NCBI GenBank assembly: GCA_001275005.1
Contig: JWZX01003217.1
Span: 1 to 54,972, forward strand
Length of the DNA stretch: 54,972 nt
Direction: 5' to 3'
Origin: Chrysochromulina tobinii
Lineage: Eukaryota; Haptophyta; Prymnesiales; Chrysochromulinaceae
Under the pieces are notes generated by a model. The model ran no database searches. It saw only the letters and a program-made list of their open reading frames with translations, and was not told the origin of the DNA. Each line of letters starts with the position of its first letter. Position 1 is the stretch's first letter. Of the stretch, positions 6,657-36,317 are shown piece after piece. The position numbers and the translations under genes were made by a program.

Positions 6657-9600
6657 TCACCGACCACGCCCAGGCCACTTAAGCGGCTCGAGCACCGCGG
6701 CCTTGACTAGCTGCTGTGTCTCCTGCTGCTGCCGCTGCTGGTCCGGTGCGGGTGCAGCGCTCACGGGTGCAGCGTTCACCGGTGCGGCGCTCCCCCTCAC
6801 GGGTGCGATGCGCGTGGGATCGAGATCTGCGGGGGATCTGCGGGAGATCTGCGTGGGATCGAGATCTGCGCGCGCCTGCCGGTAGCCCACCTGGGCCGCG
6901 TAGGGGTCGAGGCCGGGCTGGAGGCGAGCAGCAGCAGCGCGACGGTACTCGGCCTCGCGCCGATACTCAGCCTGCTGCCGGACCGCTGCCTGCTCCTGCT
7001 CGAGGCGGAGTATCGCTAGCTGCCTCTCGAAGTGCTCGGCCTCGGCGCGCTCCGCCGCGCTCATGACGCGCGTGGCGCGCTGCACGGCCAGCAGGCTATC
7101 GAGCTGCTCACGCAACCCATCGAGTTGACGCTCCATCACCGGGACACGCGCCGTGTTGAGCGGATCGCGCGCCTCGTCGCCCAACATGGCGCCATGGGTG
7201 GGGCTGTTGAGCGCCGTGATGAGCGCGGATAGCCGCTTGAGCTCCGAGCAGATCTCGTGCAGCGAGATCTCGTGCAGCGTGGCCTGCACGGCGCCCATTG
7301 TCGACTCGAGGGCGCCCACGCGCTCCTCGAGTTCACTGAGCTCCTCGAGCTGCTGCGCATCGTCCGCCGCCGCCGCCGCCGCCGTGCGGCCCATCACGGC
7401 GCCCGGAACAGCGCCCATCACGGCGCCATCACCGTGCGGCGAGGCGGCTGGCCAGCGAGCGCGGGCGAAGACGCCACCTGGCATGCGACGAGTGGCCGCG
7501 GAGCGCGACGCTTCTCGTGCCGCGAGCTTCGACTCCAGTTGGTTAGGGTCGCGAATGCACTTCCGGCCGCAAGACAAGGGGGGAAGTGTCTTGCGGCCGT
7601 TGATGGTCGGAATGGCGCCGTCCCTGGGCACGGGGACGCCCGGGTGAGGAGGAGGTGCAGCCGCAGCGCCCGCGCCGTGCATGCCGCCAAACTCGAGCCG
7701 CGCCTCGAGCATCGCCGAGATCGACTCGAGCTTGTGCGTCACAAGCTGAGCCTCTTCCCGCGACAGCTGGCCGCGCGACGAGAGGCGCCCTGCCTCGCGC
7801 TCCGTGCGCTCCGCGATCGTGCGCTGCATCACGAGGAGCTTTTGGAGCGCGCGCCGCTCGACGGCATTGGCCTCGGGCCGCGTGAAGACGGTGCGCTTGT
7901 CCTGCTCAAAGGGGCGCATGCCGTTGGCCGAGTGCGCGCGGAAGAATCGGCGAGGCGTCTTCGAAATGTCCTCGAGCGACTGCTCACGCACAAGGCGCAG
8001 CCGCGTCTTGAGCTCGGGCGGCCCGGCGGCGGACGTCCCTGTCCTCGGCCCGTCCGCCTTCTCCCCGGAGGCGGCGCGCTGCTGCATCGCCTGTCGAAGG
8101 CGCTGCGCCTCAAGGCTCGCCTGCGCCACGCGCTTCCACGACGCACGGAGACGCGGCCACGTCATCACAAAGTCGATGGGCAGCACGAGCAGGATGAAGG
8201 GCGCGGGGATCGGGTGCTGGAGCAAGAAGACGGCCACCGACAGCGCCTTGTTCATATTCATGTGCTCACGCGACGCGTCGACGACCTCCGAGTAGCGTGC
8301 GTTGAACATGGCGATCAGCAAGTTGACGAAGAGGATGAGGACGAGCAGGCAGTAGAGCCACAGGAAGAAGGGCGCGACCAGGGCGCTGCCCGGGGAGCCG
8401 GCGATCTCGGCCGGGTTGAAGTAGCCAAAGGTAGCCCAAAAGGGGGCGAAGAAGGGCCCCGCGGCTGATACATCGAGCTCCTGGTTGAACCAAGGGTGGA
8501 GCGGACCCGCGCCATGCTCGGACTGGTAGTGGGGCAGCAGCAGGTTGAGCGCGACGCCGAAGCCCGATCCGATCACGATGACGAGCGGCAGCCAGAAGCG
8601 CAGATCGTACGCCATGCGAGAGGCGGCGATGATCAGCGCGCCGAGCGTCTCCGAGACGGAGAAGATCTCGGTCAGGCTGAAGAAGATGGGGAGCGCGGCG
8701 ATCGCGAGCAGCGTGCGCAGCACCTCGGTCGCCACCGTCCAACCGCAGTTGCCCGCTGGCGCGCCGTGCTGCCAGCCGCCGCCGTGCTGCAGGAAGTAGT
8801 GCTCGCTCTGCGACTGGCCGGGCAGGCTGTCATGGCGTGCACGGATCCGCCCGTCGGCGCGCAGGTCGAGGAACGCGATCAGATCGGTCGCCTCGGCTGC
8901 GGTCAGAGATGCAAAAGGGTCGCCACGCCGAAACCAGAGAGCGCAAGCGAAGAATGCGAGGAGCGAGACGATCGTGAGCGCATCAACCCACTTGTACACG
9001 CTGTACTTGCGACCCCATCCTTGGACCGTGGCGACGAAGAGGGCGAGCTGGTATGCCTTGGCGACGACCCAGATGAAGAGCACCAGGTGTGCCGTGTACA
9101 GGGGCTGGCAGAGCGGCAGAAAGGAGACCCACACGAAGAGGCCGGTGAACGCGTAGTGTGAGACCATGTCGAGCACGCGCTTGACGAGAGGGATTTGCAG
9201 CAGCCCAACGAGATGCTCGTACCGGTGCACCCGCATCGTGAGCACGTGCCCTTTTGCGGTAGGGTCGAACCCCTGCCGGGTGTGCCGTGCACCTTCCTCG
9301 GCGATGGGCCGGATGGGCCACCGGTATAGATCGTTGAGCTCCGTCCAGATCCACGGCCAGTGGATGGGGAAGAAGAGGAGCTGCCAGATCAGGCCGAGCA
9401 CGAGCGTGAGGGGCGCGCTATGCTTCGTGCGCAGCATGATGCGCCCGCACGCGGCCGAGCGCCCATTCCACATCTCCTCGACGAGCGCCTGGCAGTACCG
9501 ATGCGAGATGAACTTCTTGTTCTCAAGCTCGACCGCGACCTCGAAGAGGGACGAGCGCCGGTGGCGCGTACCCAGCTCGGCCGAGTCGCCCTCTGAGGTG

Positions 9601-12600
9601 AGGAGCAGCTTGCGTGCGGTCTCCTGGTCGGCCAACGTGTCGAGCAGCGCGACGGCGTTCGTCTCGAACCATTTCTCGAGGCTGACGAGCTCGTCCGACT
9701 CGGCCGAGAGGGAGACGCGCAGCTTGCGACAGACCTCCTGGCCGATCAGCGCCGCACGCAGCGGAGACACAGTGCGCTCCCAGATGACCTTGACGAACCT
9801 GGCCGCGCCGCAGCAGATGCCCCACACCAGCAAGTCGAAGGCTCGGACGGTCCTCTGGCGCGCGGCGTAGTACTCGAAGCCCACAATGTGCTGGCGCAGC
9901 ATGAGCACATGCTCCTCGCGCCACGGCGTCGTGTCGGGCAGGTCAAACGGCAGGCGCGCACCCAGAGCCGAGGCGGACATGCCAAGTTCTCCAAAGAGCG
10001 TGGAGAGGCTCACTTCGGACACCTTCGCGCCATACTGCAGCAGCAGGTCCACGATGCGCACGTCGAACGAAGGGTCGGTCACGCGCAGCAGCGCCTCCTG
10101 CAGCGCCTCCTGCACCATCTCCGCACGCGCGGCCGCCGAAGTTCCATACGAGCTCGTATGCATCAGCAGCTGATGGAGCACATCGTACCGCCCCCAGCGC
10201 GCCACCAGCGCGACGCCGAGCGCGTGCCCGCCCTTGCCGCTCACCATGTTACTCGACGCGCGCATGAAATCATTGCACGCAGCCTGAAGCAAGAGGCGCG
10301 ACACCTCCAGCCTGATGAGCTTGACGTCCTCCTCGCTCAGTGCATTGACGTCCTCCTTCAGGGCGAGCGCACGCAGCTTCTCAATGCACTCGTCGACCGA
10401 GTTGCTCCTCTCGAGGGCCACCCAGCGCCCACGCACGAGCACATCGACCCCGAGCTTGCCTCCGAACGAGCCACTGCGGCTCCTGTCGCGCCTGTCGCGC
10501 CCAGGCTCGTCACGCTGTGGTGAGCACGTGCATGCAAGACAGGCCATCAGTGGCAATCAACGCACCTGTCGCGCCCATGCTCGTCACGCCCGCCCCGCTT
10601 GCTCTCATGCTCCGCCGCGTGGCAGCTCAGCCGCAGCTCGAGCGTCGTGCCGAGCGATCGAATCGACAGCTGGCGCATCGTGTCGATAGGCTGGTGGCGC
10701 AGCAGCCGCTGCTTCACTGCTTCACAGGCCCACTGCTGCTGTGACGCGTACAGCGTCAGATTCTCGTCGACGTCGCGCCAGCACACACGACTCTCCACTT
10801 TAGGGCTCTCCTCTTTAGCCGTCATCCGCTGAAGCACCGAGATGCGCATGGATAAACCGCGCCAGTTGATCGCCGACGCCGGTGTCTCCGTCGAGATCCA
10901 TAGCTCGTCCTCCGGCTCGTCGTCGTCCGGCTCCTCGTCCGAGTTGGTCGGACCGCCTGTGCGAGCGGCAGCCCCCTTTCGAGAGCTCATCGAGCGCAAG
11001 GTCCTGCCCATGAACGATCTGGCGGACCTGATGCCCATGAACGATCTGGCGGACCGTGACTCGCTCCCCGTGTGTGAGTACGACTGCAGGCGAATCTTGG
11101 AGGAGAGCTCTCGCGACATGTGGAAGTGGACTGCGGTCGTCTCGATCCACGCGTGGTCCGTGTTGCGTGGGTCGTCCACGTAGCCGCGGTACACAATCCG
11201 CGCATCCTCGCTCGAGAGCTCATCGGGCAGGTTGAAGAGCTCGTCCAGGAGCAGGCGCGTCCGATCCCGCGGCTGGCCACGGTAGTTCGCTGCGCGCTGC
11301 GCGAGGCCGGCTTGCGGCTCAAAGGCCTGGCGCAGCGCCTGCGCCAGCGTCTCGCCCTCGCGGATCAGCCGCCCTGGGAGCGATCGGCCATGCCGCGCGC
11401 TGTGGTGAGCACTTGCATGCAAGACAGGTCATCAGTGGCAATCAACGCACCTGGCAGCGACCACTCATCGGAGCCATCAGTACGCTTGACGACCACCACC
11501 TGCAGCTGGTTCGTCGTTGGGTGTAGCCGCGTGACGATCGGGTCGGCCGCGTGGTTGGGTCCCCACTTGCCCAGCAGCCCGCGGCCCGCGAGCCCCGTCC
11601 GCCCTCGCGGGTTGAGCGGTCGGCCACGCCCACCGTTGGGCTCGAGACTTGCGTTGCCCTCTTCGAACTGGAGGGGCCCCTCGAAGGTGAGCCGGCGCTC
11701 GATCCGCTTGGACGTGAGAGCAAACGTCTCCGCGGAGCGCGGGTCGAGTAGCCGTTTGGCGCTGCCCCTCGGGCTGACGACGGGGCTGGACACCTCCTGT
11801 ATCAAATTCTCCATAGATACATGTCGCTGTCTCGGGTCTTCCGGGTCGGCCCAGCGCTGCTGACGCGTCCGGCTGCGAAAGTTGTCGGTCACAGTCGGGT
11901 CGGTGTAGTCCGCCGGAGCGTATCCAGGGAAGGGCACGGACCAAGGCACCTTCTCGTCGGGCACTTGGACGCGGGCCGGATACCTATCGGGCGCGGGTCG
12001 TACGCGCGCTCGCTCGTGCGGCGCGATCTTCTCCGCCACTCGATCGACAAGCTGCCGGTGGCTCGCGTACAGGTTCGCATACCGGTCCTCGGACAGCGGG
12101 TTGATGTCGAGCCAGATGGCGCGCGTGGCGTCATCGCCTGCGCCGAGCGCGAGCTTGTCTCCTGCGAGGCGAGATTGGGGGCGAGATTAGACGGAGATTG
12201 CAGGCGAGATTGGAGGCGAGATTGGGCCGAGATTGGAGGCGAGAGGCGCACCGATCTCGGGCGGGCAGTGGAAGTGGAATGCGGTCGTCTCGATCCACGC
12301 GTGGTCCGTCGTCCGCGGGTCGTCCACGTAGCCGCGGTACACCACGGTGCCGCCCGAGGCGAAGAGCCTACCGGTCGCCTCTTCAAAGAGTCTCTGCCCT
12401 TCTGGGTCGGGAATGTTGCCCACCTCCGCCCTGAACTCGCGCTGGACCGTCTCTGACACCGTCTCTCCCTCGTCCACCATACCTCCAGGAAGGGCCCACA
12501 CGCCCGGCTGGTCGGCACGCTCGATCGCAACCATCTGCAGCTGGTTCGTCGTTGGGTGTAGCCGCGTGACGATCGGGTCGGCCGCGTGGTTGGGTCCCCA

Positions 12601-14604
12601 CTTGCCCAGCAGCCCGCGGCCCGCGAGCCCCGTCCGTCCTCGCGGGTTGAGCGGCAGTCGCTTCTCATGATCCCAGAGCAGCACGCCTTTCGTCTCGTAT
12701 GTCTTGCGCGAGAGTACCTCGGCGATGAGATCGCTGCTCAGTGGCGCGGGCGGGTCGGCCCACTTAGCCTTCGCATGCGCACGTCGCTCTTCGCGCGTGG
12801 CCCCGTGGTTGCAGAACTTGGTCAGCACCGGGTGCTCGTACGTGGGCGGGTGGTAGCCTCCCGCCGCTGTCCAGTCGGCCTCCCATGGCACAAGACCCTC
12901 GTCCGCAATGGGCAGCCGGCGCACGCCTTCGGGGCAGTCCGCGCCCACGTAACGGTCGCGATCGCGCGCCTTAAGGTGCACGGGCGGCTTGGCGGGTTGC
13001 TCGAGGGAGCCCACTGGCTGCGGAACCTTGACGGCGCGGCGCGCCAGCTTGCGCCGCTCGATGTCAGCGTCAGTGCGCAGCTTGCAGCTGGCGACGACCG
13101 CGTTGAGGATGGAAGTCTCGAGAGACTCGGCTTTGGCCATTGAGAAGACGATCATCAGGTCACGCAACGTGCGCTTGTCGAGCGTGTGCGGCGCGGGCGT
13201 GTGCGAGAGTGAGGGCAGCAGCAGTCGCACCGCCTCCTCCACCTTCTCCCGTGGCACCTTGAGCACGTCCCACTGCTCAAGCTGCTCGTGTAGCAGAGTC
13301 GCCCAAAGCTCGACCGACCCCGGCTCTCGCTCCGGATGCTCCTGAACCTTGAGGGCGAAGTCCGCGAGGGCGCGTGCACAGCCGCGTGACTCGCGCACGA
13401 GCACGCAAGGCGTGTGGTTGCTCCAGGTCGTCAGGATCGTATTGAACGTGCCGCGCCCGCCCTGGACCATGAGGAGCACCCATCAGAGGTCATCAGGGTC
13501 ATCCGAGGTCATCAGAGGAGCGCTTACCTGGATAACGAGGAGCACTGAGGGCACCATGAGCTTCTCGACGAGCCGCCGCTCCACCTGGCCACGTAGCTCG
13601 ATCTCAGCACCCCATGCTGGAGCGCGTGCCCCCGGGTCGTCGACGAGGATGAAGTGCGAGTGGTTCATGTCCAGCGCCGACGACGCGCTCGAGTTCTTGA
13701 TCCGCTTGATGTACGGCAGCAGTGGCGGCGGCAGGCGCTCCTCGGGCTTCGCCTGCCGCAGGCTCTCCTGGTTCGTCACGCACCCGAGCGGGGCGATGCC
13801 GATGAGCGGGGTGGCCCATGCGTGTCCCTCGGCGCGCACGTTGGTAGTGGTCCGACTGCGCAACGCGCGCCCAACCAGCTCCATCACGCCCGTGTCCATG
13901 CCGCCCGTGATTACCCACGCGCGCGTCGAGGACGCCGCCGAGTCGATGCCGTCGCGCAGCATATTCTCAAGTCGTGGCTCAAGGTCCATCGCCTGCGCTG
14001 AGCCGCTTACAGTGAGGAGCACGGATGGCACCTGGATGCGCCAGTAAGACAGTAACAGCTTGACAATTGCATCCGCATCCGTGCGCGTCGACACGCCTGC
14101 GAAGCGTGCAGGCTCGTCCATCAGCTCGTCATCGAAAGAGAAGAAGAGGCGGCCGATCTGGTGGATGCCCGTCGCGTAGAGGTTCCCTACGTCGGCATTG
14201 CTCTCTTGCCAGCGCTCTTCGCGGCGGTCCTCCACCTGTTGCTCGCACTGGCTCGACCAGCACCAGCTCTGTGCCAGCAGTGGCTTGGATTGGCTTAGCG
14301 AGTTGTGCGATGCTGGCGCTGTTCGCGGTGAGCTGCCGGCTGGTGTCGCGTCGCCGGAGCTATCTATGCCGAGCAACCTGCCCCCTCCAGCGGTCTTCTT
14401 ATATGAGCCGTCGGGCAACGCACCGTCGGCGAATCTAGTGTGCGTGTCCATGCCGGACGTGGCGCCATCTTCTCTATCAACGTCTCCCGAATCCCTGCCG
14501 GCTTTACTGATTTCTTTGGCAGGCAGACTCGACAGGTTGAGCGGCAGCGCCGGCGTGTTGGTGCGAGGGTGCACGCGGGACGAGTCCCCTCGCTGCCAAT
14601 GCAT
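6657..14604 (-). CDS. TRPM-like cation channel with two tandem NUDT9-homology domains N-terminal to the pore
   Basis: Five exons join in frame: 14604-13528, 13461-12252, 12161-11451, 11373-10566, 10491-6657 (about 2,546 aa). Order: (1) the TRPM N-terminal nucleotide-binding region, with WVITGGMDTGVMELVG, PLIGIAPLG, LDMNHSHFILVDD and, after the first splice, GGRGTFNTI; (2) NUDT9H-1; (3) NUDT9H-2; (4) a helical region like TRPM MHR3/4, with a segment like FISHRYCQALVEEMWNG; (5) six TM segments, a pore loop around PFWATFGYFNPAEI and an S6/TRP region LFVNLLIAMFNARYSEV; (6) a C-terminal coiled-coil and Pro/Ala-rich tail. Animal TRPM2 is an ADP-ribose- and Ca2+-gated channel with one C-terminal NUDT9H. 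Here two lie before the channel, so gating by ADP-ribose is a reasonable inference, not shown. The start is uncertain; a second in-frame ATG is at 14451. Junctions were placed by reading frame and homology; transcript data would settle them. Confidence 0.85.
10492..10565 (-). repeat. Introner-like intron, copy 1
   Basis: A 74-nt intron (donor GTGCGTTG, phase 2) restores the TRPM gene's frame when removed. Its first about 51 nt match copy 2 at 11400-11450 with only two differences. Its last 23 nt duplicate the end of the upstream exon with one mismatch (CGTGACGAGC-TGGGCGCGACAG), as expected if an insertion or tandem duplication created the intron. Confidence 0.75.
10760..11990 (-). other. NUDT9-homology domain 2 (degenerate Nudix box)
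   Basis: This domain starts with RYPARVQVPDEKVPWSVPF, matching the NUDT9 N-terminal region, then RWADPEDP, PLNPRGRTGLAGRGLLGKWG, and NHAADP. After splicing of 11374-11450 it continues WSLPG-RLIREGETLAQALRQAFE. The box residues R, E, E, E of REUXEE read Q, A, P, Q, so hydrolysis is not expected. YRGYVDDPRNTDHAWIETTA is retained, and VCWRDVDENLTLYAS closes the domain after a long inserted linker of about 100 residues. Expected role: ligand binding without catalysis (inference). Confidence 0.85.
11374..11450 (-). repeat. Introner-like intron, copy 2
   Basis: A 77-nt intron (donor GTGCGTTG) whose core TTGCATGCAAGTGCTCACCA is shared with copy 1 and partly with the kinase intron at 18842-18905. 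Its 3' end (GATCGCTCCCAG) resembles the upstream exon end (GGTCGCTGCCAG), 10 of 12 identical. Removal joins WSLPG to RLIREGE and completes the second Nudix region. Confidence 0.75.
12040..12920 (-). other. NUDT9-homology domain 1 (near-canonical Nudix box)
   Basis: Family landmarks in order: a KWADPPAP-type segment, then PLNPRGRTGLAGRGLLGKWG and NHAADP, LPGGMVDEGE, VQREFRAEVG, YRGYVDDPRTTDHAWIETTA and, across the intron at 12162-12251, GAGDDATRAIWLDIN and NLYASHRQLVDRVAEK. These match NUDT9/TRPM2 landmarks closely. The Nudix consensus GX5EX7REUXEEXGU is met except that the first Glu of the EE pair is Ala. Human NUDT9 hydrolyses ADP-ribose to AMP and ribose-5-phosphate, so this copy could retain reduced activity. 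Confidence 0.85.
12162..12251 (-). repeat. Intron built of about 12-bp CAATCTCGCCTC-type repeats
   Basis: A 90-nt GTGCGC...CAG intron in NUDT9H-1. Most of it is CCAATCTCGCC-like units repeated about six times with small changes. Removal joins PPEI-G to DKLALGAGDD in frame, matching the NUDT9 landmark. Confidence 0.7.
13462..13527 (-). repeat. Intron whose 3' end duplicates the upstream exon end
   Basis: A 66-nt GTAAGC...CAG intron in the TRPM-like gene, phase 0. The upstream exon ends GTGCTCCTCGTTATCCAG and the intron ends GTGCTCCTCATGGTCCAG (15 of 18 identical). GATGACC-type short repeats fill the middle. Removal joins VLLVIQ to GGRGTFN, the expected TRPM motif. Confidence 0.7.
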
Positions 14605-14923: not shown

Positions 14924-17098
14924 TCACGCCTCAAGCTTGCCCATGAGGCGTGTTGACGGCGCGCCTCTTCTTGTTGACGGGCCGCCACTTCTGCATGTTG
15001 TGATCGCGGTGCTTGCATTGGCAGCAGCCAACGTTTGGCTCTCGCGTTGCTGCACCACACGGCGCTGCTTGTCGAGTTCGAGTCGGCCCGCTTCCTTCCT
15101 GATATTCATCGATTCACGCATCATGTAGATGGCCATTTCCTTGAAGAGTGTCCAGGTTTTGACTGCCTTGTACGCGTTCGGATAGGCGTGGATGAGGTTC
15201 ACAAAGTCCCTCTTGCTGACGGAACTTGTGTGCACGTATGTGTTCGTCACCGCGCGCAGCGGCTTGGCTTTTGTCAGCAACAGATCGGGCCAGCCCCACG
15301 TATCTCCCGGACCGAGCAAACTGGATCTCGTGGATGAGATGCGGTAGTGGACGCTGCCCTGTGAGATGAAGTAGAGGCACTTACCCGGGGGCAATTCCTT
15401 GGGCCCGAAGACGACGGGGCGCATGCTCAGCACTATCTGGCACAGGAAGCCCTTGCGCTCGGCCTCCATCACTCTTTGAAAGCACCCGGAGACGAAGCAC
15501 GGGATCCGCAAGAGCCAGTGCTTGTTGAGCTCCCACGTCACCCTCTGCTTGAGCATGGGCGACAGCTGCTCGATCGCGGCCATGCGCGAATCGTACTTCA
15601 AGACGTCGATCGTGTGGAAGTAGTAGCGGCGTAGCTCACGGGAAATTTCCTTGGAGAGCTTGTACTGGTCGCAGAAGCGGTTTAGCGCGTCGAGCCCCTC
15701 GGTGAACCGTTTGCGGTCTGGGTCGGCCTGCGTGAGCGCGACAATCAAATTGCCGAAGATAACCGTCCACGCGAAGACGCCAAAGAGGAGCATGACGAGT
15801 AGCAGAATGTACTCGGTCGGCTTGAACTGCACCTCCCACTCCGGTTGCAGCGCAGCCGCGTCGGTAGGAGAGGTCGGAGACGTCGATGAGGAGGTCGGAG
15901 AGGTCGAGTAGAAGGGCTTGTAGGGGCCCATTGCCGGCGTGATCGAGTAGCCGGTGAGCAGCTGCACAGACCAGAAGAGGCAGTGGAGGTACCGATAGGC
16001 GACGTCCACACACTCGGCGAGCACCCTACCCTGTGAGTCGGTGAGCAGGCTTCCGTCGGCCTCGACGCCCGCGGGCTTGCAATAGCCAAAGGTGCCGAGC
16101 CACGTGTCGAGAGGTGATTCGAAAAATGTGGTCCAGATGGCAACAATGCAAGCGTATGCGTGCGTGAGCATGCACGTCTGGGCGAGAAGGCTGATGAGCG
16201 TGACGGTCACTGAGTTGAGCGAGATGCGCTCGCGAGCGCGCTGGAACACACGCGAGGCGCGCATGAGCCGCAACAGCTTGACCAAGCGCAGCGCGCGCAA
16301 TGTGCGCAGCGCCTTGGCGCCGCCCGCATCGGGCCCTTCATTCGAAATGACCGGCAGAATGTCAAAAATGGACGGAAAGATCGAGATGACGTCGAGGAAG
16401 AACCAGCCGCGCACGTAGTTGCGTGCAAGCGCACGCGGATTCATCTCCCAGGCGCTCTTGCCTACAGGATCGCCCGCCTTCGGAACGATTGGCGTCATGA
16501 TGAAGAATGCGAAGATCACATCTAGGATGAAGATGCAATCGACGATACGGTTGATCACAAAGAGCGGTTCGTCGGCGCGAGTGGGTGGAGGTAGGAAACC
16601 GACCTCGAACGGCGTCAGCGCCGCAGTATACATGAGCGCAAGCCCGCCGATCACATCCCAGGCGGGAAAGATGGTCATGTTACTCAGCACCTTGAGGGCC
16701 ACTTGGTTCAAGACGTTCCTGGCGTTGATTTCTGCCCTGTCAAGCACCCGAGTCCCTTGTGGCCTACGGGAACGGATGTCGAGGCGCTTGCGTGCCACCA
16801 TTCTCCTTCGCTGCTCTCTCACAAAGGTGCCAGTCGGGTCAATTATGTACCAAGGAACCTTCTGAACACCGTCCAGCTCCTTGTTGATCAGCTTTGCTTC
16901 GATGACATCAGACATGCTCCGCTCTTCCTTCGGCACCAACGCTTGAGGCACCTCTTCCTCGTCAAGCTGCGCCTTCGCGTCCGGCTGCGAATCAGGCTCA
17001 GTCACAGGGCCAAACAGTGCCGTACTGTTTGTGCTTCTGTTTTGAGTTCCTGCCGTGCTCGACCCTCTTGCAAGGGATACCTTACAACCTCTCCTCAT
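14924..17098 (-). CDS. Six-TM voltage-gated-like cation channel with cyclic-nucleotide-binding-like domain
   Basis: A 724-aa intronless frame from an ATG. The start of the membrane domain (FPAWDVIGGLALMYTAALTP, residue about 143) and the whole order follow the CNG/HCN/EAG superfamily: S1-S3, a voltage-sensor S4 with regularly spaced Arg/Lys (LRTLRALRLVKLLRLMRASR, about 263), S5, a pore loop (about 379-400), S6, a C-linker (RELRRYYFHT) and a cyclic-nucleotide-binding fold (about 530-650). Two oddities: the filter reads LLTGYSITP in place of the potassium GYG/GFG signature, and the phosphate-binding cassette (LGPGDTWGWPDLLL...RAVTNTYV) lacks the usual GE...A pattern, so ligand gating is uncertain. 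It lies head-to-tail upstream of the TRPM-like gene and divergent from the NEK-RCC1 gene. Confidence 0.85.
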   Translation of the reverse strand: MRRGCKVSLARGSSTAGTQNRSTNSTALFGPVTEPDSQPDAKAQLDEEEVPQALVPKEERSMSDVIEAKLINKELDGVQKVPWYIIDPTGTFVREQRRRMVARKRLDIRSRRPQGTRVLDRAEINARNVLNQVALKVLSNMTIFPAWDVIGGLALMYTAALTPFEVGFLPPPTRADEPLFVINRIVDCIFILDVIFAFFIMTPIVPKAGDPVGKSAWEMNPRALARNYVRGWFFLDVISIFPSIFDILPVISNEGPDAGGAKALRTLRALRLVKLLRLMRASRVFQRARERISLNSVTVTLISLLAQTCMLTHAYACIVAIWTTFFESPLDTWLGTFGYCKPAGVEADGSLLTDSQGRVLAECVDVAYRYLHCLFWSVQLLTGYSITPAMGPYKPFYSTSPTSSSTSPTSPTDAAALQPEWEVQFKPTEYILLLVMLLFGVFAWTVIFGNLIVALTQADPDRKRFTEGLDALNRFCDQYKLSKEISRELRRYYFHTIDVLKYDSRMAAIEQLSPMLKQRVTWELNKHWLLRIPCFVSGCFQRVMEAERKGFLCQIVLSMRPVVFGPKELPPGKCLYFISQGSVHYRISSTRSSLLGPGDTWGWPDLLLTKAKPLRAVTNTYVHTSSVSKRDFVNLIHAYPNAYKAVKTWTLFKEMAIYMMRESMNIRKEAGRLELDKQRRVVQQRESQTLAAANASTAITTCRSGGPSTRRGAPSTRLMGKLEA

Positions 17099-17617
17099 TC
17101 GCCGACAGCTAGAAGCTGGTCACTAAAATACCTGATGGTGACCAGGGCTTTTGGCCGGAAGAGCGGAAGACAGGCCTGGACGGTCCGGATGATCGGAGCG
17201 GCCCAAAGGATCGGAGCGGCCCAAAGGAAAAGTGCCAAAACACGACGAAGCGTCTCGAGGCTCAACCTCCGTACCGGTATACCGGTAAAAAGACACCGGG
17301 GTAGCCCACCGGTCTAGACCGGTAAGACCGGTAACGCGACGTGCTGGTATGAAAACGACTAGGTGAGGCTGCTCTACGATGGTGGCGAGACGCGAGGCGC
17401 GCATTTCCATGTTATCGCACACGCGTCCCCCCGAAGCTTCCTCTCACGTACAATACCACGTTTCTAACATCTCCACCGGGTCTCCAACGCCATCCAAGCC
17501 GCCGTAGAATGGTTGCCGGTACCCAGCATGTCGTAACGTTCACAAACTCGTTCACACACCATCCCGTCCGTCGGCCGTGCAGCGCGGCCTCCTGCTGCAG
17601 AGGGCAACTTCCGGGAC
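17099..17617. promoter_or_regulatory. Divergent intergenic region with ACCGGT cluster and 18-bp tandem repeat
   Basis: About 519 bp separate two divergent genes. Five copies of the palindrome ACCGGT lie at 17273-17278, 17281-17286, 17308-17313, 17318-17323 and 17327-17332. Just before them GATCGGAGCGGCCCAAAG is repeated in tandem (about 17190-17228). These are candidate promoter elements; no gene was seen. Confidence 0.4.
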
Positions 17618-32854: not shown

Positions 32855-35800
32855 CTACGCCTTGACCACGTTCCGGACTCGGCCCAGTCCGAGCTCTTTC
32901 AGCCTACGGATGGTGCGGGTCTCGAGCTCGCGCGCGGCCGACTTGGACTCGACCTCGACGAGCACACACTCCAAGAGCCGGTCAGCATGGCGCCGGCGGT
33001 GTTGCTGCAGCCGCCGCCCGATACTATCCGACTCGCCCACGTACAGCGCGGGTGCGACGGCGCTGCCGCTCACCTGGGCGCCCTCCTTGGCACCGAGCTG
33101 GAGCACGTACACGCAAGAGCGCCCATTCAACCGTGGCGGCGGTTGCCAGTCGGCGTGAACCTGAACGAGGTGGTCGCTGCCACTGAGCGCGCGTAGTACC
33201 TCACCTGCCGCGCACAGCTGACTCTTTCTCTGCTCGTCTGCCTTTGCGGCCGCTTCGACGTCGAGAATGGTCGCCGCCCACTCCTCCGCTGCTGTGCCAG
33301 TGCTGCCCTCACCCTCCTCCTCCTCCTCCTCCTCGCCGCCTTCCACCTCGCCGCCCTCCTCCTCGGCACGGGCTTTGCTCATGCCTGCCAGCAGAGCCTC
33401 GGCGCGCTCGACCAGGTCGGCGGGCAGCCCAGCGCCGCGCGCAACGTGGAGCGCGAGCGAGTTGCGGCTCATGCCCTCGGAAAGGGTGAAGCTCATGGCG
33501 ATACGGCCATCGGCGGCGGCCTCGGCTACCGGCAGGCACATCCAGCGGAGCGAGGGCAAGGTCGGCAGGCGCGCGAGCAGTGACTCGAGCTCATGCAGAT
33601 GCGTCGCGAAGACGGCGCTCATCTGGTGCCGGTCGAGCCACTCGAGCAGCGCTGCGGAGAGGGCAGTGCCCTCGTTCGTCGAGGTGCCCCGTCCGATCTC
33701 GTCGAGCATGAGAAGGGATCGACGCGTCCCCTCCCTTGTCATCAGCTGCAGGTCATCCATCTCTTGCGCAAACGCCGACTTGCCCTCGGCGGGCGCGTCG
33801 AAGGACGTTGTACGAAGGAAGAAGGCGTCGTAGCGCGGCACCGTCGCTGAACGCACGGGAGCCAGCAGACCGCTGTTGGCGAGGAGCGCCGCGACGAGCA
33901 TCGAGCGCATCAGCGACGACTTGCCCGCCATGTTGGGCGCAGTAAGCAGCCACAGACCGTCCCATGCGAGGGTGTTTGGCGTGGCTGCGTGCTGCGGGAG
34001 CCAGTATGGCCACACCCCCTCGAGCTCGAGCATGCGGTCCGCGTCGGACGCCGTCTTGAGCAAAGGCAGCGCCCATCGCTGCTCGAGGGCATATCCGACG
34101 TGTGCGGCCAGCGTGGTCGAGAGCAGCACCCAGTGTGCGGCTGTCACGAGCGTGGGCATAGCGGGCGCCAGCTCGTCGCACAGCCGCTGCAGATGCTCCT
34201 TGACGGCGCGCTCGGCACAGTCGCAAGCCTCGAGGTAGCGCACCGTGGCCTCGCGCATCCGTACGCTCAAGTACCGGTTGGCAAGCACGCGCTTGTTGCG
34301 ATCGCGGGCGGGCTCGAGGTGCGCTGGCGTGGGTGGTGAGCCTGGGCCCCGGACCCCATCGCCGCCTCCAAGATCGTCGCCTTCGCCATCGCCGCTATCG
34401 CCGTAGGCGGCCGCCGCGGCCGCGCTCCTGCGCACGTAGAGCTTGCCTGTGCCTCTGCGCAGGTAGATTGCGTTGTTGATGGTGTCGTGCACGACGATCT
34501 GCCCTGTGGCACGCACATCTTCGGCGACGCCGTCACAAAGCTCGCGTGCAGCGGCCTCGAGGGCCGCGTACTCGCCGGCCACCCTCTCCCGCCGAATGAG
34601 CTTACGGAAAGTACCCTCATTACGCTTGAAGAAGCCCTCCGGGATGAGGCCGTGCGCGTCCGTGCACGGCTCGTCGGCGGAGGTGGCCGCGCTGTCGGCC
34701 ACAAGACCCGTGATGTTCTCGTGCGCGCGGTGCGCGCTCTCGGCGAGGTGCGATGGGGAGAGTCGCAGGCCCGACTCCTCGGCGACGAGCGCGAGGAGCG
34801 CCTTGTTCAAACGCGCGAGCTCCGGCGAGCGTAGCGCCGCGTGCACTGCCGCGAGCACCTGCCGCAGCTCGAGGAAGAGCGGCGCGTTCGCTTGTCGCGC
34901 GAGGAGCAGCGAGACGAGCTTGCCTATCGGCACGGGGCGCGCCCTCGGCAGGGCGGTCGATAGCGCCACGAGTTCCGCGCACGCGTCGTGCATCGCGTCC
35001 GCCACCGACGGTCGCGGCGGGAGCAGCAGCCAGCGCCGGAGCAGATGCACGCACGCCGCAGGAGCGTCCGGCGGCAGCACGGAGCGCATCAGGTCGGGTA
35101 CGCCCGGCGCGGGCAGCAGCCCAATCTGCGTGGCGGTCGACATGAATAACGGTGTGGGCGGCGCGTCAAGACCCTCGCCCCGGGAGGGCAGTTGCCGAAA
35201 GGAGCGACCGTCCACCTGCGCTTCCTCCGCGACGAAGTCGATCATCGCCTGTGGGAAAGCGCCAGGGCTTGGCACGTTGAGCGCACGCTTCTCCAGGTGC
35301 GCGAGCGCGCGCGGGAGTGAGATGTCCCCGAGGTCGTTGATGAGGAGCGGCGGCGCGTGTGGACGTGCCGACAGCAGCGCGTGCAGCGCCGCGGGCGAGA
35401 GCCGCTGGTACAGCCGCCACGCACGCGAGTCGAGATGCACGAGCACGACCATGTAGCCGCTCGCGGTGGCGCTGACGCCCGCAAAGGGCGGCGGTTCGGC
35501 GTAGTCGATCTGGTAGGGCGAGAGGCACGCCTCGTAGTGATACACGGGCGAGGCGGGCGAGACTACTTGTGCAAGTACGCGCTGCTTCAGCTTGCGGAAG
35601 CGCCCCTCGCCTGTGCCGGCAGGCGCGACCTCCTCGTAGACCGCGACTGTGAGGCCCGCGGAAGTGAGCGCATCGAGCGTCGCCTGCACGTTCTGGACGG
35701 GACATCCGGCACGGCATTTGCTGCCCATAGGGTTGAGCCCCGCCCACTGCACAAGCATGAGCGCATCGAACCCGAACGCCTCGTAGAACTCACCCACACG

Positions 35801-36187
35801 AATGAGGAGCAGCTGATCAGGCCGCTTTTCCTTCTCGAGAACGGCGAACTCAACGAGCGTACCGCTCGTCCGCGCGACTTTGTTCTCGAAGCACAGGGCG
35901 TTTTCCGTCGAAAGGTATGGCACGAGCGCTATCGCTGCTGGCTTTGTCAGCTCGGCAAGCCGCTGCCGCCAAAAGGGAGTCAGCTGCAAGCTGCTCTCGC
36001 CGGCAGAGGAGGTGCACGCGATAGCCATGCGAAGCAGCGAGCGCTGCGGCAGCAGCGAGAGCGACGAAACGCCGAGGCAGGAGAACAACATGATGAGGAT
36101 CGCCGATACATGTACTTCGCCGATATGGATTGGTGACCTCAAATTCCCCACTACAACCTGTTTGGCGTAGGGCAATGCAGTGTCCAT
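32855..36187 (-). CDS. MSH1: Organellar MutS homologue with GIY-YIG nuclease domain (plant MSH1 type)
   Basis: 1,110 aa, intronless. The hydrophobic N-terminus suggests organelle targeting. MutS domain I landmark LLLIRVGEFYEAFGFDALML (about 128) is followed by GCPVQNVQATLDALTSAGL, as in plant MSH1. The ATPase has P-loop TAPNMAGKSS (about 751; the first Gly of GxxxxGKS is Ala) and Walker B LLMLDEIGRGTSTNEG (about 826). After a Glu-rich linker the C-terminus (about 1022-1110) is a GIY-YIG domain: VYVLQL, ALYVGESDSIGRRL and the catalytic Glu in ARELETRTIRRL. MSH1 keeps plant organelle genomes from recombining and mutating. Divergent from the cold-shock gene with 130 bp between the starts. A later Met in the leader could be the start. 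Confidence 0.9.
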   Translation of the reverse strand: MDTALPYAKQVVVGNLRSPIHIGEVHVSAILIMLFSCLGVSSLSLLPQRSLLRMAIACTSSAGESSLQLTPFWRQRLAELTKPAAIALVPYLSTENALCFENKVARTSGTLVEFAVLEKEKRPDQLLLIRVGEFYEAFGFDALMLVQWAGLNPMGSKCRAGCPVQNVQATLDALTSAGLTVAVYEEVAPAGTGEGRFRKLKQRVLAQVVSPASPVYHYEACLSPYQIDYAEPPPFAGVSATASGYMVVLVHLDSRAWRLYQRLSPAALHALLSARPHAPPLLINDLGDISLPRALAHLEKRALNVPSPGAFPQAMIDFVAEEAQVDGRSFRQLPSRGEGLDAPPTPLFMSTATQIGLLPAPGVPDLMRSVLPPDAPAACVHLLRRWLLLPPRPSVADAMHDACAELVALSTALPRARPVPIGKLVSLLLARQANAPLFLELRQVLAAVHAALRSPELARLNKALLALVAEESGLRLSPSHLAESAHRAHENITGLVADSAATSADEPCTDAHGLIPEGFFKRNEGTFRKLIRRERVAGEYAALEAAARELCDGVAEDVRATGQIVVHDTINNAIYLRRGTGKLYVRRSAAAAAAYGDSGDGEGDDLGGGDGVRGPGSPPTPAHLEPARDRNKRVLANRYLSVRMREATVRYLEACDCAERAVKEHLQRLCDELAPAMPTLVTAAHWVLLSTTLAAHVGYALEQRWALPLLKTASDADRMLELEGVWPYWLPQHAATPNTLAWDGLWLLTAPNMAGKSSLMRSMLVAALLANSGLLAPVRSATVPRYDAFFLRTTSFDAPAEGKSAFAQEMDDLQLMTREGTRRSLLMLDEIGRGTSTNEGTALSAALLEWLDRHQMSAVFATHLHELESLLARLPTLPSLRWMCLPVAEAAADGRIAMSFTLSEGMSRNSLALHVARGAGLPADLVERAEALLAGMSKARAEEEGGEVEGGEEEEEEEGEGSTGTAAEEWAATILDVEAAAKADEQRKSQLCAAGEVLRALSGSDHLVQVHADWQPPPRLNGRSCVYVLQLGAKEGAQVSGSAVAPALYVGESDSIGRRLQQHRRRHADRLLECVLVEVESKSAARELETRTIRRLKELGLGRVRNVVKA

Positions 36188-36317
36188 TGCACTTGTGAAG
36201 GAGAGCGTGAGTGGTGTGTCTCGTTGAACACGTGGCGCTCCCTGGCGTTCTGCGGGACCGATTTCATGTCGACGGCTTCGACTGCTTGGTTTGAGGAGCT
36301 AAGCAAACTTTCCGCCA

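What the first reader, a model, noticed from the sequence alone, without database searches (positions are those of the whole stretch)
6657..14604. TRPM-like channel with two NUDT9-homology domains placed before the pore
Seen: in one gene the order is TRPM SLOG-type N-terminus, NUDT9H, NUDT9H, MHR-like region, six-TM pore, coiled coil. All five exon joins keep frame and land on family motifs. Known: animal TRPM2 has one NUDT9H, C-terminal to the pore, and senses ADP-ribose there and in its N-terminus. Inference: an algal Ca2+ channel with three potential nucleotide-binding modules, two of them fused to the N-terminal sensor, independently assembled or an older domain order. I know of no described channel with this layout.
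Basis: partly seen in the sequence, partly recalled or inferred. Interest (0 to 1): 0.93.

Follow-up and report, generated by a model that had tools for sequence, protein, structure and literature searches.

The report
TRPM channel with N-terminal Nudix pair
A microbial, probably algal, gene encodes a TRPM-type ion channel that carries two ADP-ribose-enzyme-like domains near its front end instead of one at its back end, a domain order not found in the papers searched and shared by relatives in the same genome and in other sequence collections.

Summary
On the minus strand (14604-6657) four GT-AG introns join five exons into one 2546-aa frame: TRPM SLOG, NUDT9H, NUDT9H, MHR3/4-like region, six-TM pore, TRP helix, coiled coil. 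It is not a splicing or assembly artefact. A paralog runs from inside NUDT9H-1 through NUDT9H-2, MHR and pore in one 1886-codon frame. Proteins P0127 and P0128 hold the full order in one polypeptide.
New here: the two NUDT9H copies are unequal. Copy 1 keeps all three Nudix-box glutamates in 10 of 12 sequences. Copy 2, as aligned, has lost the Mg-binding glutamate in 9 of 9 but keeps the ADP-ribose arginine in 9 of 9. The window gene's copy 1 keeps two of three glutamates. Its SLOG site keeps the aromatic and arginine, but its membrane Ca2+ site is degraded.
Best reading: an ADP-ribose-responsive TRPM channel with a hydrolase-like and a pseudoenzyme-like Nudix domain beside the N-terminal sensor. 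Gating and Ca2+ permeation are inferred, there is no transcript, and one fusion origin or several is unresolved. New variant of a known kind.

The parts
13528..14604 (-). exon 1: start codon, N-terminal tail, first part of the TRPM SLOG (MHR1/2) domain
   Evidence: LSDAT_euk E 5.3e-38 on this exon; TRPM2 MHR1/2 crystal 7aov E 4.7e-26
12252..13461 (-). exon 2: rest of SLOG/MHR1-2 and most of NUDT9H-1
   Evidence: human NUDT9 1q33 E 5.7e-39; TRPM2 chanzyme 8sr7 E 1.6e-29
11451..12161 (-). exon 3: end of NUDT9H-1 and first half of NUDT9H-2
10566..11373 (-). exon 4: second half of NUDT9H-2 with an internal insert, and a linker
   Evidence: the insert is also present in P0121 and, in other form, in P0012 and P0025
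6657..10491 (-). exon 5: MHR3/4-like helices, six-TM pore, TRP helix, coiled coil, stop codon
13324..14109 (-). TRPM SLOG domain (interrupted by intron 1); HFILVDD...AWGAEIELR carries the ADP-ribose aromatic (W) and arginine
   Evidence: residue roles from PMC11479946 section 7
12010..12993 (-). NUDT9H-1, hydrolase-like; Nudix box REFRAE (two of three glutamates) and catalytic GDD kept
10709..12027 (-). NUDT9H-2, pseudoenzyme-like; Nudix-box glutamates and GDD lost, ADP-ribose arginine (R1428 position) kept; the last part (residues 1194-1221) scores only E 4 on its own
12535..12651 (-). gene-conversion-like tract in NUDT9H-1
   Evidence: 116 of 117 bases identical to 11500-11616; 27 of 28 core codons identical
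11500..11616 (-). gene-conversion-like tract in NUDT9H-2
9468..10280 (-). MHR3/4-like helical region
8304..9191 (-). six transmembrane helices S1-S6 with pore loop GPFFAPFWATFGYFNPAEIAG
   Evidence: helices of the model, alignment
8220..8297 (-). TRP-like helix after S6
7197..7367 (-). coiled-coil stretch
   Evidence: Dynamitin profile match E 4.4e-5, below its cut-off, read here only as coiled coil
13462..13527 (-). intron 1 (66 nt)
   Evidence: P0009 and P0127 read across the join
12162..12251 (-). intron 2 (90 nt)
   Evidence: P0001 reads across the join, whereas P0002 and P0003 run on into the intron
11374..11450 (-). intron 3 (77 nt), holds the 56-nt repeat
   Evidence: P0005 and P0127 read across the join; the near-identical P0001 ends and P0121 begins inside the intron sequence
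10492..10565 (-). intron 4 (74 nt), holds the 56-nt repeat
   Evidence: P0121 reads across the join

Best explanation
A TRPM-family cation channel of a probably haptophyte alga in which a tandem NUDT9-homology pair sits between the N-terminal SLOG (MHR1/2) sensor and the MHR3/4 region. Shown: one gene, the domain order, homology of every part, and conservation of the order in paralogs and in other sequences. Inferred: ADP-ribose made during stress binds the SLOG site and starts opening. NUDT9H-2, which keeps the ADP-ribose arginine but has lost the catalytic glutamate, acts as a second binding or coupling site, like the dead NUDT9H of human TRPM2. NUDT9H-1, with a largely intact Nudix box, slowly destroys the agonist and so acts as a local off-timer, like the choanoflagellate and sea-anemone channels. 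In animal TRPM2 the C-terminal NUDT9H lies in one layer with MHR1/2; here the pair would reach that layer directly through the chain.
For: One open frame over four GT-AG joins. Domain matches. TRPM fold of exon 5. Same-genome paralogs: C955, 1886 codons without a stop, from inside NUDT9H-1 to the coiled coil; C1509, SLOG to NUDT9H-1 in 882 codons; C1166, SLOG-NUDT9H-NUDT9H in 1587 codons followed by MHR/pore matches in other frames. Full order in single proteins P0127 and P0128. Copy 1: E1386-position glutamate in 11 of 12, all three glutamates in 10 of 12. Copy 2, as aligned: E1386 position changed in 9 of 9 (Asp in 1, Ala or Lys in 8), all three glutamates in 0 of 9, R1428 position Arg in 9 of 9. 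SLOG aromatic and arginine kept as W and R. Roles of these residues in srTRPM2 are from PMC11479946 sections 7 and 11; Nudix-box mutant activity from passages of PMC6461439.
Against: No transcript, binding, enzyme or current data. The window gene's copy 1 has Ala at the second Nudix glutamate, so its hydrolase may be weak. The S2-S3 Ca2+ site (E, Q, N, D in P0130, P0131, C955 and P0128) reads L, gap, K, D here, so TRPM2-like Ca2+ co-activation is doubtful for this gene. The ELF/QIP filter motif is replaced by YFN (motif from PMC5671594). The SLOG pattern search covered 12 proteins and matched 7; C1166 and P0016 lack the aromatic by eye. The enzyme/pseudoenzyme split is not perfect: the D1460 position is Asp in 2 of 9 copies 2 and Gly in 1 of 10 copies 1 that reach it (P0005), and P0007 copy 2 (REAFENE) could be read one residue shifted with the glutamate kept. 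C1166 copy 2 has a long insert, so its aligned Nudix letters are unsure. Several copies are near-duplicates (C1509 and P0128). The C1509 model has pTM 0.52, so the placement of NUDT9H-1 beside SLOG is not established.
Confidence: 0.55

Rival explanations
1. Annotation or assembly artefact: a NUDT9-like gene and a TRPM-like gene lie side by side and were joined by wrong introns or a wrong contig join.
For: The window gene needs four introns, two of which carry a repeated 56-nt element with several possible acceptors. No transcript is available. Near-identical database entries do not settle every join: P0002 and P0003 run on into intron 2, P0001 ends and P0121 begins inside intron 3.
Against: C955 runs from inside NUDT9H-1 through NUDT9H-2 and MHR to the pore in one 1886-codon frame with no intron. 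P0127 and P0128 are single proteins with the full order. P0001 (93%) reads across the place of intron 2 and P0121 (94%) across that of intron 4.
Confidence: 0.02
2. The architecture is real but the Nudix pair does not gate the channel with ADP-ribose. It hydrolyses or binds another nucleotide or only scaffolds, and the pore is gated by something else such as lipid, voltage or temperature.
For: The membrane Ca2+ site is degraded in this gene and in P0121, P0122, P0123, P0124 and P0129. C955 and P0128 copy 2 are strongly diverged (E 6e-16 to 9e-21 and 1e-15 to 1e-20 per main fragment). In Nematostella TRPM2 disrupting catalysis leaves gating unchanged (PMC6461439 passages). C1166 and P0016 lack the SLOG aromatic by eye.
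Against: The ADP-ribose arginine of NUDT9H is kept in 9 of 9 copies 2 and 11 of 11 copies 1 that reach it, and the SLOG aromatic plus arginine are kept in the window gene, P0127, P0128, P0129, P0009 and C1509.
Confidence: 0.3
3. The N-terminal order is an old TRPM order, or came by moving the C-terminal NUDT9H of a TRPM2-like ancestor to the front, rather than by a separate capture of an algal NUDT9 gene. (This can hold together with the best explanation.)
For: Tree tests do not reject one clade of the channel NUDT9H rows (p-AU 0.146) or of the N-terminal ones (p-AU 0.372). A metagenome protein with the usual C-terminal order but an algal-type NUDT9H exists (P0089).
Against: In the 44-row tree the N-terminal, stand-alone and P0089 domains split from choanoflagellate C-terminal plus animal NUDT9 at 99/95, but only at 93/89 in the 25-row mixture-model tree, and the split may simply follow species kinship.
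Confidence: 0.3

Closest known systems
TRPM2 chanzyme of the choanoflagellate Salpingoeca rosetta (8sr7 and related entries; PMC11479946, sections 7 and 11 read)
   Same: SLOG/MHR1-2 with ADP-ribose aromatic and arginine; NUDT9H with Nudix box; MHR3/4, six-TM pore, coiled coil; the REFMEE box of srTRPM2 (PMC6461439 passage) equals that of C1509, C955 and P0128
   Different: One NUDT9H, at the C-terminus; here two, before MHR3/4 and the pore, none found after it; copy 2 pseudoenzyme-like; filter and membrane Ca2+ site differ in the window gene
Human TRPM2 (6pus and related entries)
   Same: A Nudix domain that lost the Mg-binding glutamate but keeps the ADP-ribose arginine (PMC11479946 section 11), as in NUDT9H-2
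   Different: Position and number of NUDT9H; human TRPM2 has no hydrolase-like partner domain
NUDT9, ADP-ribose pyrophosphatase (1q33)
   Same: E 5.7e-39 to exon 2; same core GRTG..GRGLLG.WGPNHAADPIVTR
   Different: Stand-alone enzyme; no channel
Other TRPM channels (TRPM3, TRPM4, TRPM5, TRPM7, TRPM8)
   Same: Fold of MHR3/4 plus pore: all 50 listed structural matches are TRPM
   Different: No NUDT9H (PMC13143021 passage: among vertebrate TRPM only TRPM2 has it)

Membership tests
TRPM channel family | N-terminal SLOG/LSDAT melastatin domain | tested here: met
   LSDAT_euk E 6.4e-44, cut-off passed
TRPM channel family | MHR3/4 region before the membrane domain | tested here: met
TRPM channel family | six-TM pore followed by TRP helix | tested here: met
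   helix pattern and alignment NLLIAMFN...P.PAPF; Pfam Ion_trans is under its cut-off. The alignment fed to the model held two canonical TRPM rows, which may lean it towards TRPM
TRPM channel family | tetrameric cation channel | not testable with these tools
   needs expression and recording
TRPM2 subfamily | NUDT9H at the C-terminus, after the pore | tested here: not met
   both NUDT9H lie at residues 516-1221, pore at about 1700-2000; no further NUDT9H match on this contig
TRPM2 subfamily | ADP-ribose site in MHR1/2 (srTRPM2 F268 aromatic, R275) | tested here: met
   W and R in AWGAEIELR
TRPM2 subfamily | Ca2+ site in S2-S3 (E, Q, N, D; residue identities recalled) | tested here: not met
   L, gap, K, D in the window gene; 4 of 4 kept in C955, P0128, P0130 and P0131
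TRPM2 subfamily | filter motif ELF or QIP (PMC5671594 passage) | tested here: not met
   YFN at the aligned place
TRPM2 subfamily | opening by ADP-ribose | not testable with these tools
   needs patch clamp
NUDT9 / NUDT9H domain family | homology over the whole domain | tested here: met
   two matches, E 1.8e-103 (model positions 7-277 of 283) and 7.6e-82 (positions 9-235; the rest of copy 2 scores only E 4)
NUDT9 / NUDT9H domain family | canonical Nudix box REUXEE (active enzyme) | tested here: inconclusive
   copy 1 REFRAE (first and third glutamate kept); copy 2 lost

The most novel reading that the evidence does not exclude
A separate kind of TRPM chanzyme in algae in which an enzyme and a pseudoenzyme Nudix domain are fused in tandem to the N-terminal ADP-ribose sensor. 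One clears the signal and the other reads it, so that a single subunit carries three ADP-ribose sites before its pore. It would be an arrangement evolved apart from animal TRPM2, and its two Nudix copies exchange sequence by gene conversion.
Probability: 0.4. Interest if true: 0.82.

Novelty: new variant of a known kind. Interest (0 to 1): 0.68.

Why it matters
The papers seen place NUDT9H at the C-terminus of TRPM and put it there already in the TRPM/TRPS ancestor (PMC13143021, passages; PMC11479946). A channel family with the domain doubled and moved to the front shows that this order is not fixed, and it offers a natural test of how a Nudix domain couples to the pore. It also places a live-like and a dead-like NUDT9H side by side in one chain, so the open question of enzyme versus sensor roles, worked out so far by comparing species, could be asked within one protein. 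It would point to ADP-ribose signalling through channels in marine algae, a question that I did not search as such.

Tried and rejected
Artefact of splicing or assembly: rejected on C955, P0127, P0128, P0001 and P0121.

One origin of the fusion: not decided. Tests for channel NUDT9H, N-terminal ones, tandem ones and copy 2 as one clade gave p-AU 0.146, 0.372, 0.256 and 0.556. For that tree I dropped 19 of the 44 rows: 8 named long, short or odd rows (one of them a stand-alone, P0117) and 11 further stand-alone rows that could be fragments of channels. The groups were named after the first tree had been seen.

An alternative acceptor in intron 3 (CACAG inside the repeat) also keeps frame and would add 8 residues; I preferred LPG-RLIREGE because P0005 reads LPG-KFVERGE (by eye). 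Of the acceptors that I considered by eye for intron 4, only the one at 10491/10492 keeps frame.

The structure model of C1509 residues 95-790 aligned to TRPM2 chanzymes over both domains, but with rmsd near 20 A and pTM 0.52, so it says nothing on domain placement.

Literature: 10 searches, the cap. The library holds open-licence PMC papers only. Eight papers were seen as passages found by terms; only sections 7 and 11 of PMC11479946 were read whole. PMC7555694 gave nothing on the Ca2+ site, so those residue identities are recalled.

Full report
Gene. The minus strand from 14604 to 6657 holds five long exon frames. Joining them at four GT-AG introns of 66, 90, 77 and 74 nt gives a single frame of 2546 codons and a stop. 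The contig is C2058 of a 53-Mb, 2253-contig assembly without a name.

Is it one gene? The own genome was searched in six frames with exon 2 (12 matches) and exon 5 (13 matches). Besides the two copies in C2058 itself, NUDT9H matches fall on four contigs: C1509, C1166, C955 and C1766. C955 runs from inside NUDT9H-1 (contig edge) through a diverged NUDT9H-2, MHR and pore to the coiled coil in one frame of 1886 codons, with no stop and no intron. C1509 runs from SLOG through NUDT9H-1 in 882 codons to its contig end, and overlaps C955 by 942 bases at 93.7%, so the two are probably alleles or close copies of one gene. C1166 has SLOG-NUDT9H-NUDT9H in 1587 codons, followed by MHR and pore matches in other frames. 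C1766 looks like a stand-alone NUDT9 of 360 codons. None of the 12 NUDT9H matches lies after a pore.

Relatives elsewhere. A search of 5.8 billion proteins with exon 2 gave 1978 hits among the 7993 candidates scored, of which 120 were listed. P0001 (93%) continues from the end of SLOG across the place of intron 2 into NUDT9H-2; P0004, P0005, P0006, P0007 and P0016 hold two copies or the start of a second one, and P0016 is named Prymnesium polylepis. A search with exon 5 gave 6 hits; P0121 (94%) runs from NUDT9H-2 across the place of intron 4 into the pore. Some near-identical entries do not confirm joins: P0002 and P0003 run on into intron 2, P0001 ends and P0121 begins inside intron 3, as prokaryote-style frame calling would give; intron 3 is bridged only by the more distant P0005 and P0127. 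A search with the whole protein gave 10 hits. P0127 (1924 aa) and P0128 (2511 aa, the C1509/C955 gene by similarity) carry SLOG-NUDT9H-NUDT9H-MHR-pore, the second copy of P0128 in two fragments (E 1.3e-15 and 1.4e-20); P0129 (1943 aa) carries SLOG-NUDT9H-MHR-pore with a single copy; P0130, P0131 and P0133 have the usual C-terminal copy. For P0127 and P0129 the Pfam pore and TRPM2-like matches are under their cut-offs. P0089 has a pore followed by a C-terminal NUDT9H. So the N-terminal order is a family, and both orders exist.

Two unequal Nudix copies. I aligned the domains to the NUDT9H model and read the positions that PMC11479946 (sections 7 and 11) and PMC6461439 (passages) name for catalysis and binding. 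In 12 copies 1 the Mg-binding glutamate (E1386 of srTRPM2) is kept in 11 (Asp in P0006), all three glutamates in 10 (window Ala and P0006 Ser at the second), and the third in 12. In 9 copies 2 the E1386 position is never Glu as aligned, and all three glutamates are never present. The third is Glu in 4 (P0127, P0128, P0006, P0007). The catalytic Asp (D1460 position) is Asp in 2 of 9 copies 2 (C1166, P0128) and in 9 of 10 copies 1 that reach it (Gly in P0005). The arginine that holds the ADP-ribose phosphates (R1428 position) is Arg in 9 of 9 copies 2 and in 11 of 11 copies 1 that reach it. Limits: P0007 copy 2 reads REAFENE and could be shifted by one residue so that a glutamate is kept; C1166 copy 2 has a long insert that makes its aligned letters unsure; C1509 and P0128 are near-duplicates; P0009 and P0070 are partial proteins counted as copy 1 by their place after SLOG. 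Boxes: window REFRAE, C1509/C955/P0128 REFMEE, C1166 REFLEE, P0127 REFQEE; copy 2 of the window reads RQAFEPQ. PMC6461439 reports REFMEE for the active srTRPM2 domain and RILRQE for the inactive human one. Copy 1 therefore looks like an enzyme (perhaps weakened in the window gene) and copy 2 like a binding-only domain.

Sensor and pore. The SLOG aromatic and arginine that PMC11479946 found essential (F268, R275) are W and R here. A pattern search over 12 proteins matched 7: the window gene, C1509, P0127, P0128, P0129, P0009 and P0130. P0131 has the site in the alignment; C1166 and P0016 lack the aromatic by eye; P0125 and P0126 were not looked at further. The S2-S3 cation site is kept in full in C955, P0128, P0130 and P0131 and as E, N and D in P0127 (its Q lies next to an alignment gap), but reads L, gap, K, D in the window gene and is also degraded in P0121 to P0124 and P0129. 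The window filter reads FGYFNPAEI where TRPM2-like channels have ELF. Thus ADP-ribose sensing is plausible, while Ca2+ co-activation and Ca2+ preference are open, and the genes of this genome probably differ.

Gene conversion. A 117-base tract is shared by the two copies with one difference. Over 28 core codons, 27 are identical between the two window copies. Of the other 27 pairs among this and the neighbouring loci, the near-identical C955/C1509 pair shares 26 of 27 same-residue codons, and the remaining 26 pairs share 6 to 19 of 15 to 26. Protein constraint alone would not fix synonymous bases, so recent exchange or partial re-duplication is likely.

Origin. In a 44-row tree the N-terminal, stand-alone and P0089 domains split from choanoflagellate C-terminal plus animal NUDT9 at 99/95; in a 25-row mixture-model tree the same split has 93/89. 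Copy 2 of the window groups with copy 2 of P0005, P0012 and P0025 (99/89 and 100/99), and copy 1 with copy 1 of P0004 and P0005 (99/98 with P0009; 100/98), so the tandem is older than the split of the window and P0005 lineages. AU tests do not reject a single origin. Whether the order is a fresh capture or a relocation stays open.

Literature. I made ten searches of open-licence PMC and saw passages of eight papers and two whole sections of one. Where these passages give a place for NUDT9H in a TRPM channel, it is the C-terminus. I saw no mention of an N-terminal or doubled copy. Subscription papers and preprints were not searched.

Verdict. The architecture is real (I put this above 0.95), conserved, and not described in what I searched: a new variant of the TRPM/NUDT9H channel. 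The mechanism is inference from conserved and lost residues.

Noticed in passing
window 11374-11450 and 10492-10565 (minus): Introns 3 and 4 contain a near-identical 56-nt element with GT...AG ends; 47 places in the own genome match it, these two included (a lower bound: 166 candidates, 40 scored). Near-duplicated target sequence flanks both by eye (one search shows it for intron 4), which looks like introner-type intron gain.
   Followed up: partly
window 12535-12651 and 11500-11616: 116 of 117 bases identical between the two NUDT9H copies, with 27 of 28 core codons identical: gene conversion or re-duplication.
   Followed up: yes
window 14924-17119 (minus): A cyclic-nucleotide-type channel frame (Ion_trans E 7.7e-21; cNMP-binding E 0.002, under its cut-off) ends about 320 bases upstream of the TRPM start codon on the same strand.
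   Followed up: partly
window 32855-36298 (minus): A MutS-like frame (MutS_V E 2.2e-41, MutS_I E 4.3e-10) whose C-terminus looks by eye like a GIY-YIG nuclease, as in plant MSH1 (recalled); Pfam did not report the nuclease.
   Followed up: partly
P0132 and P0134: Database proteins of almost 2000 aa listed with PF03496 (an ADP-ribosyltransferase family, recalled) plus PF01129 or PF04233, and a NUDT9H domain in the first third: possibly transferase and hydrolase of ADP-ribose in one chain.
   Followed up: no
G000: 149 matches to Ion_trans, several of them sharing one long open frame, so the genome has a large set of multi-domain cation channels.
   Followed up: no
P0129: A TRPM-like protein with a single N-terminal NUDT9H placed directly after SLOG, possibly a different insertion point from the tandem family; tests inconclusive.
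   Followed up: partly
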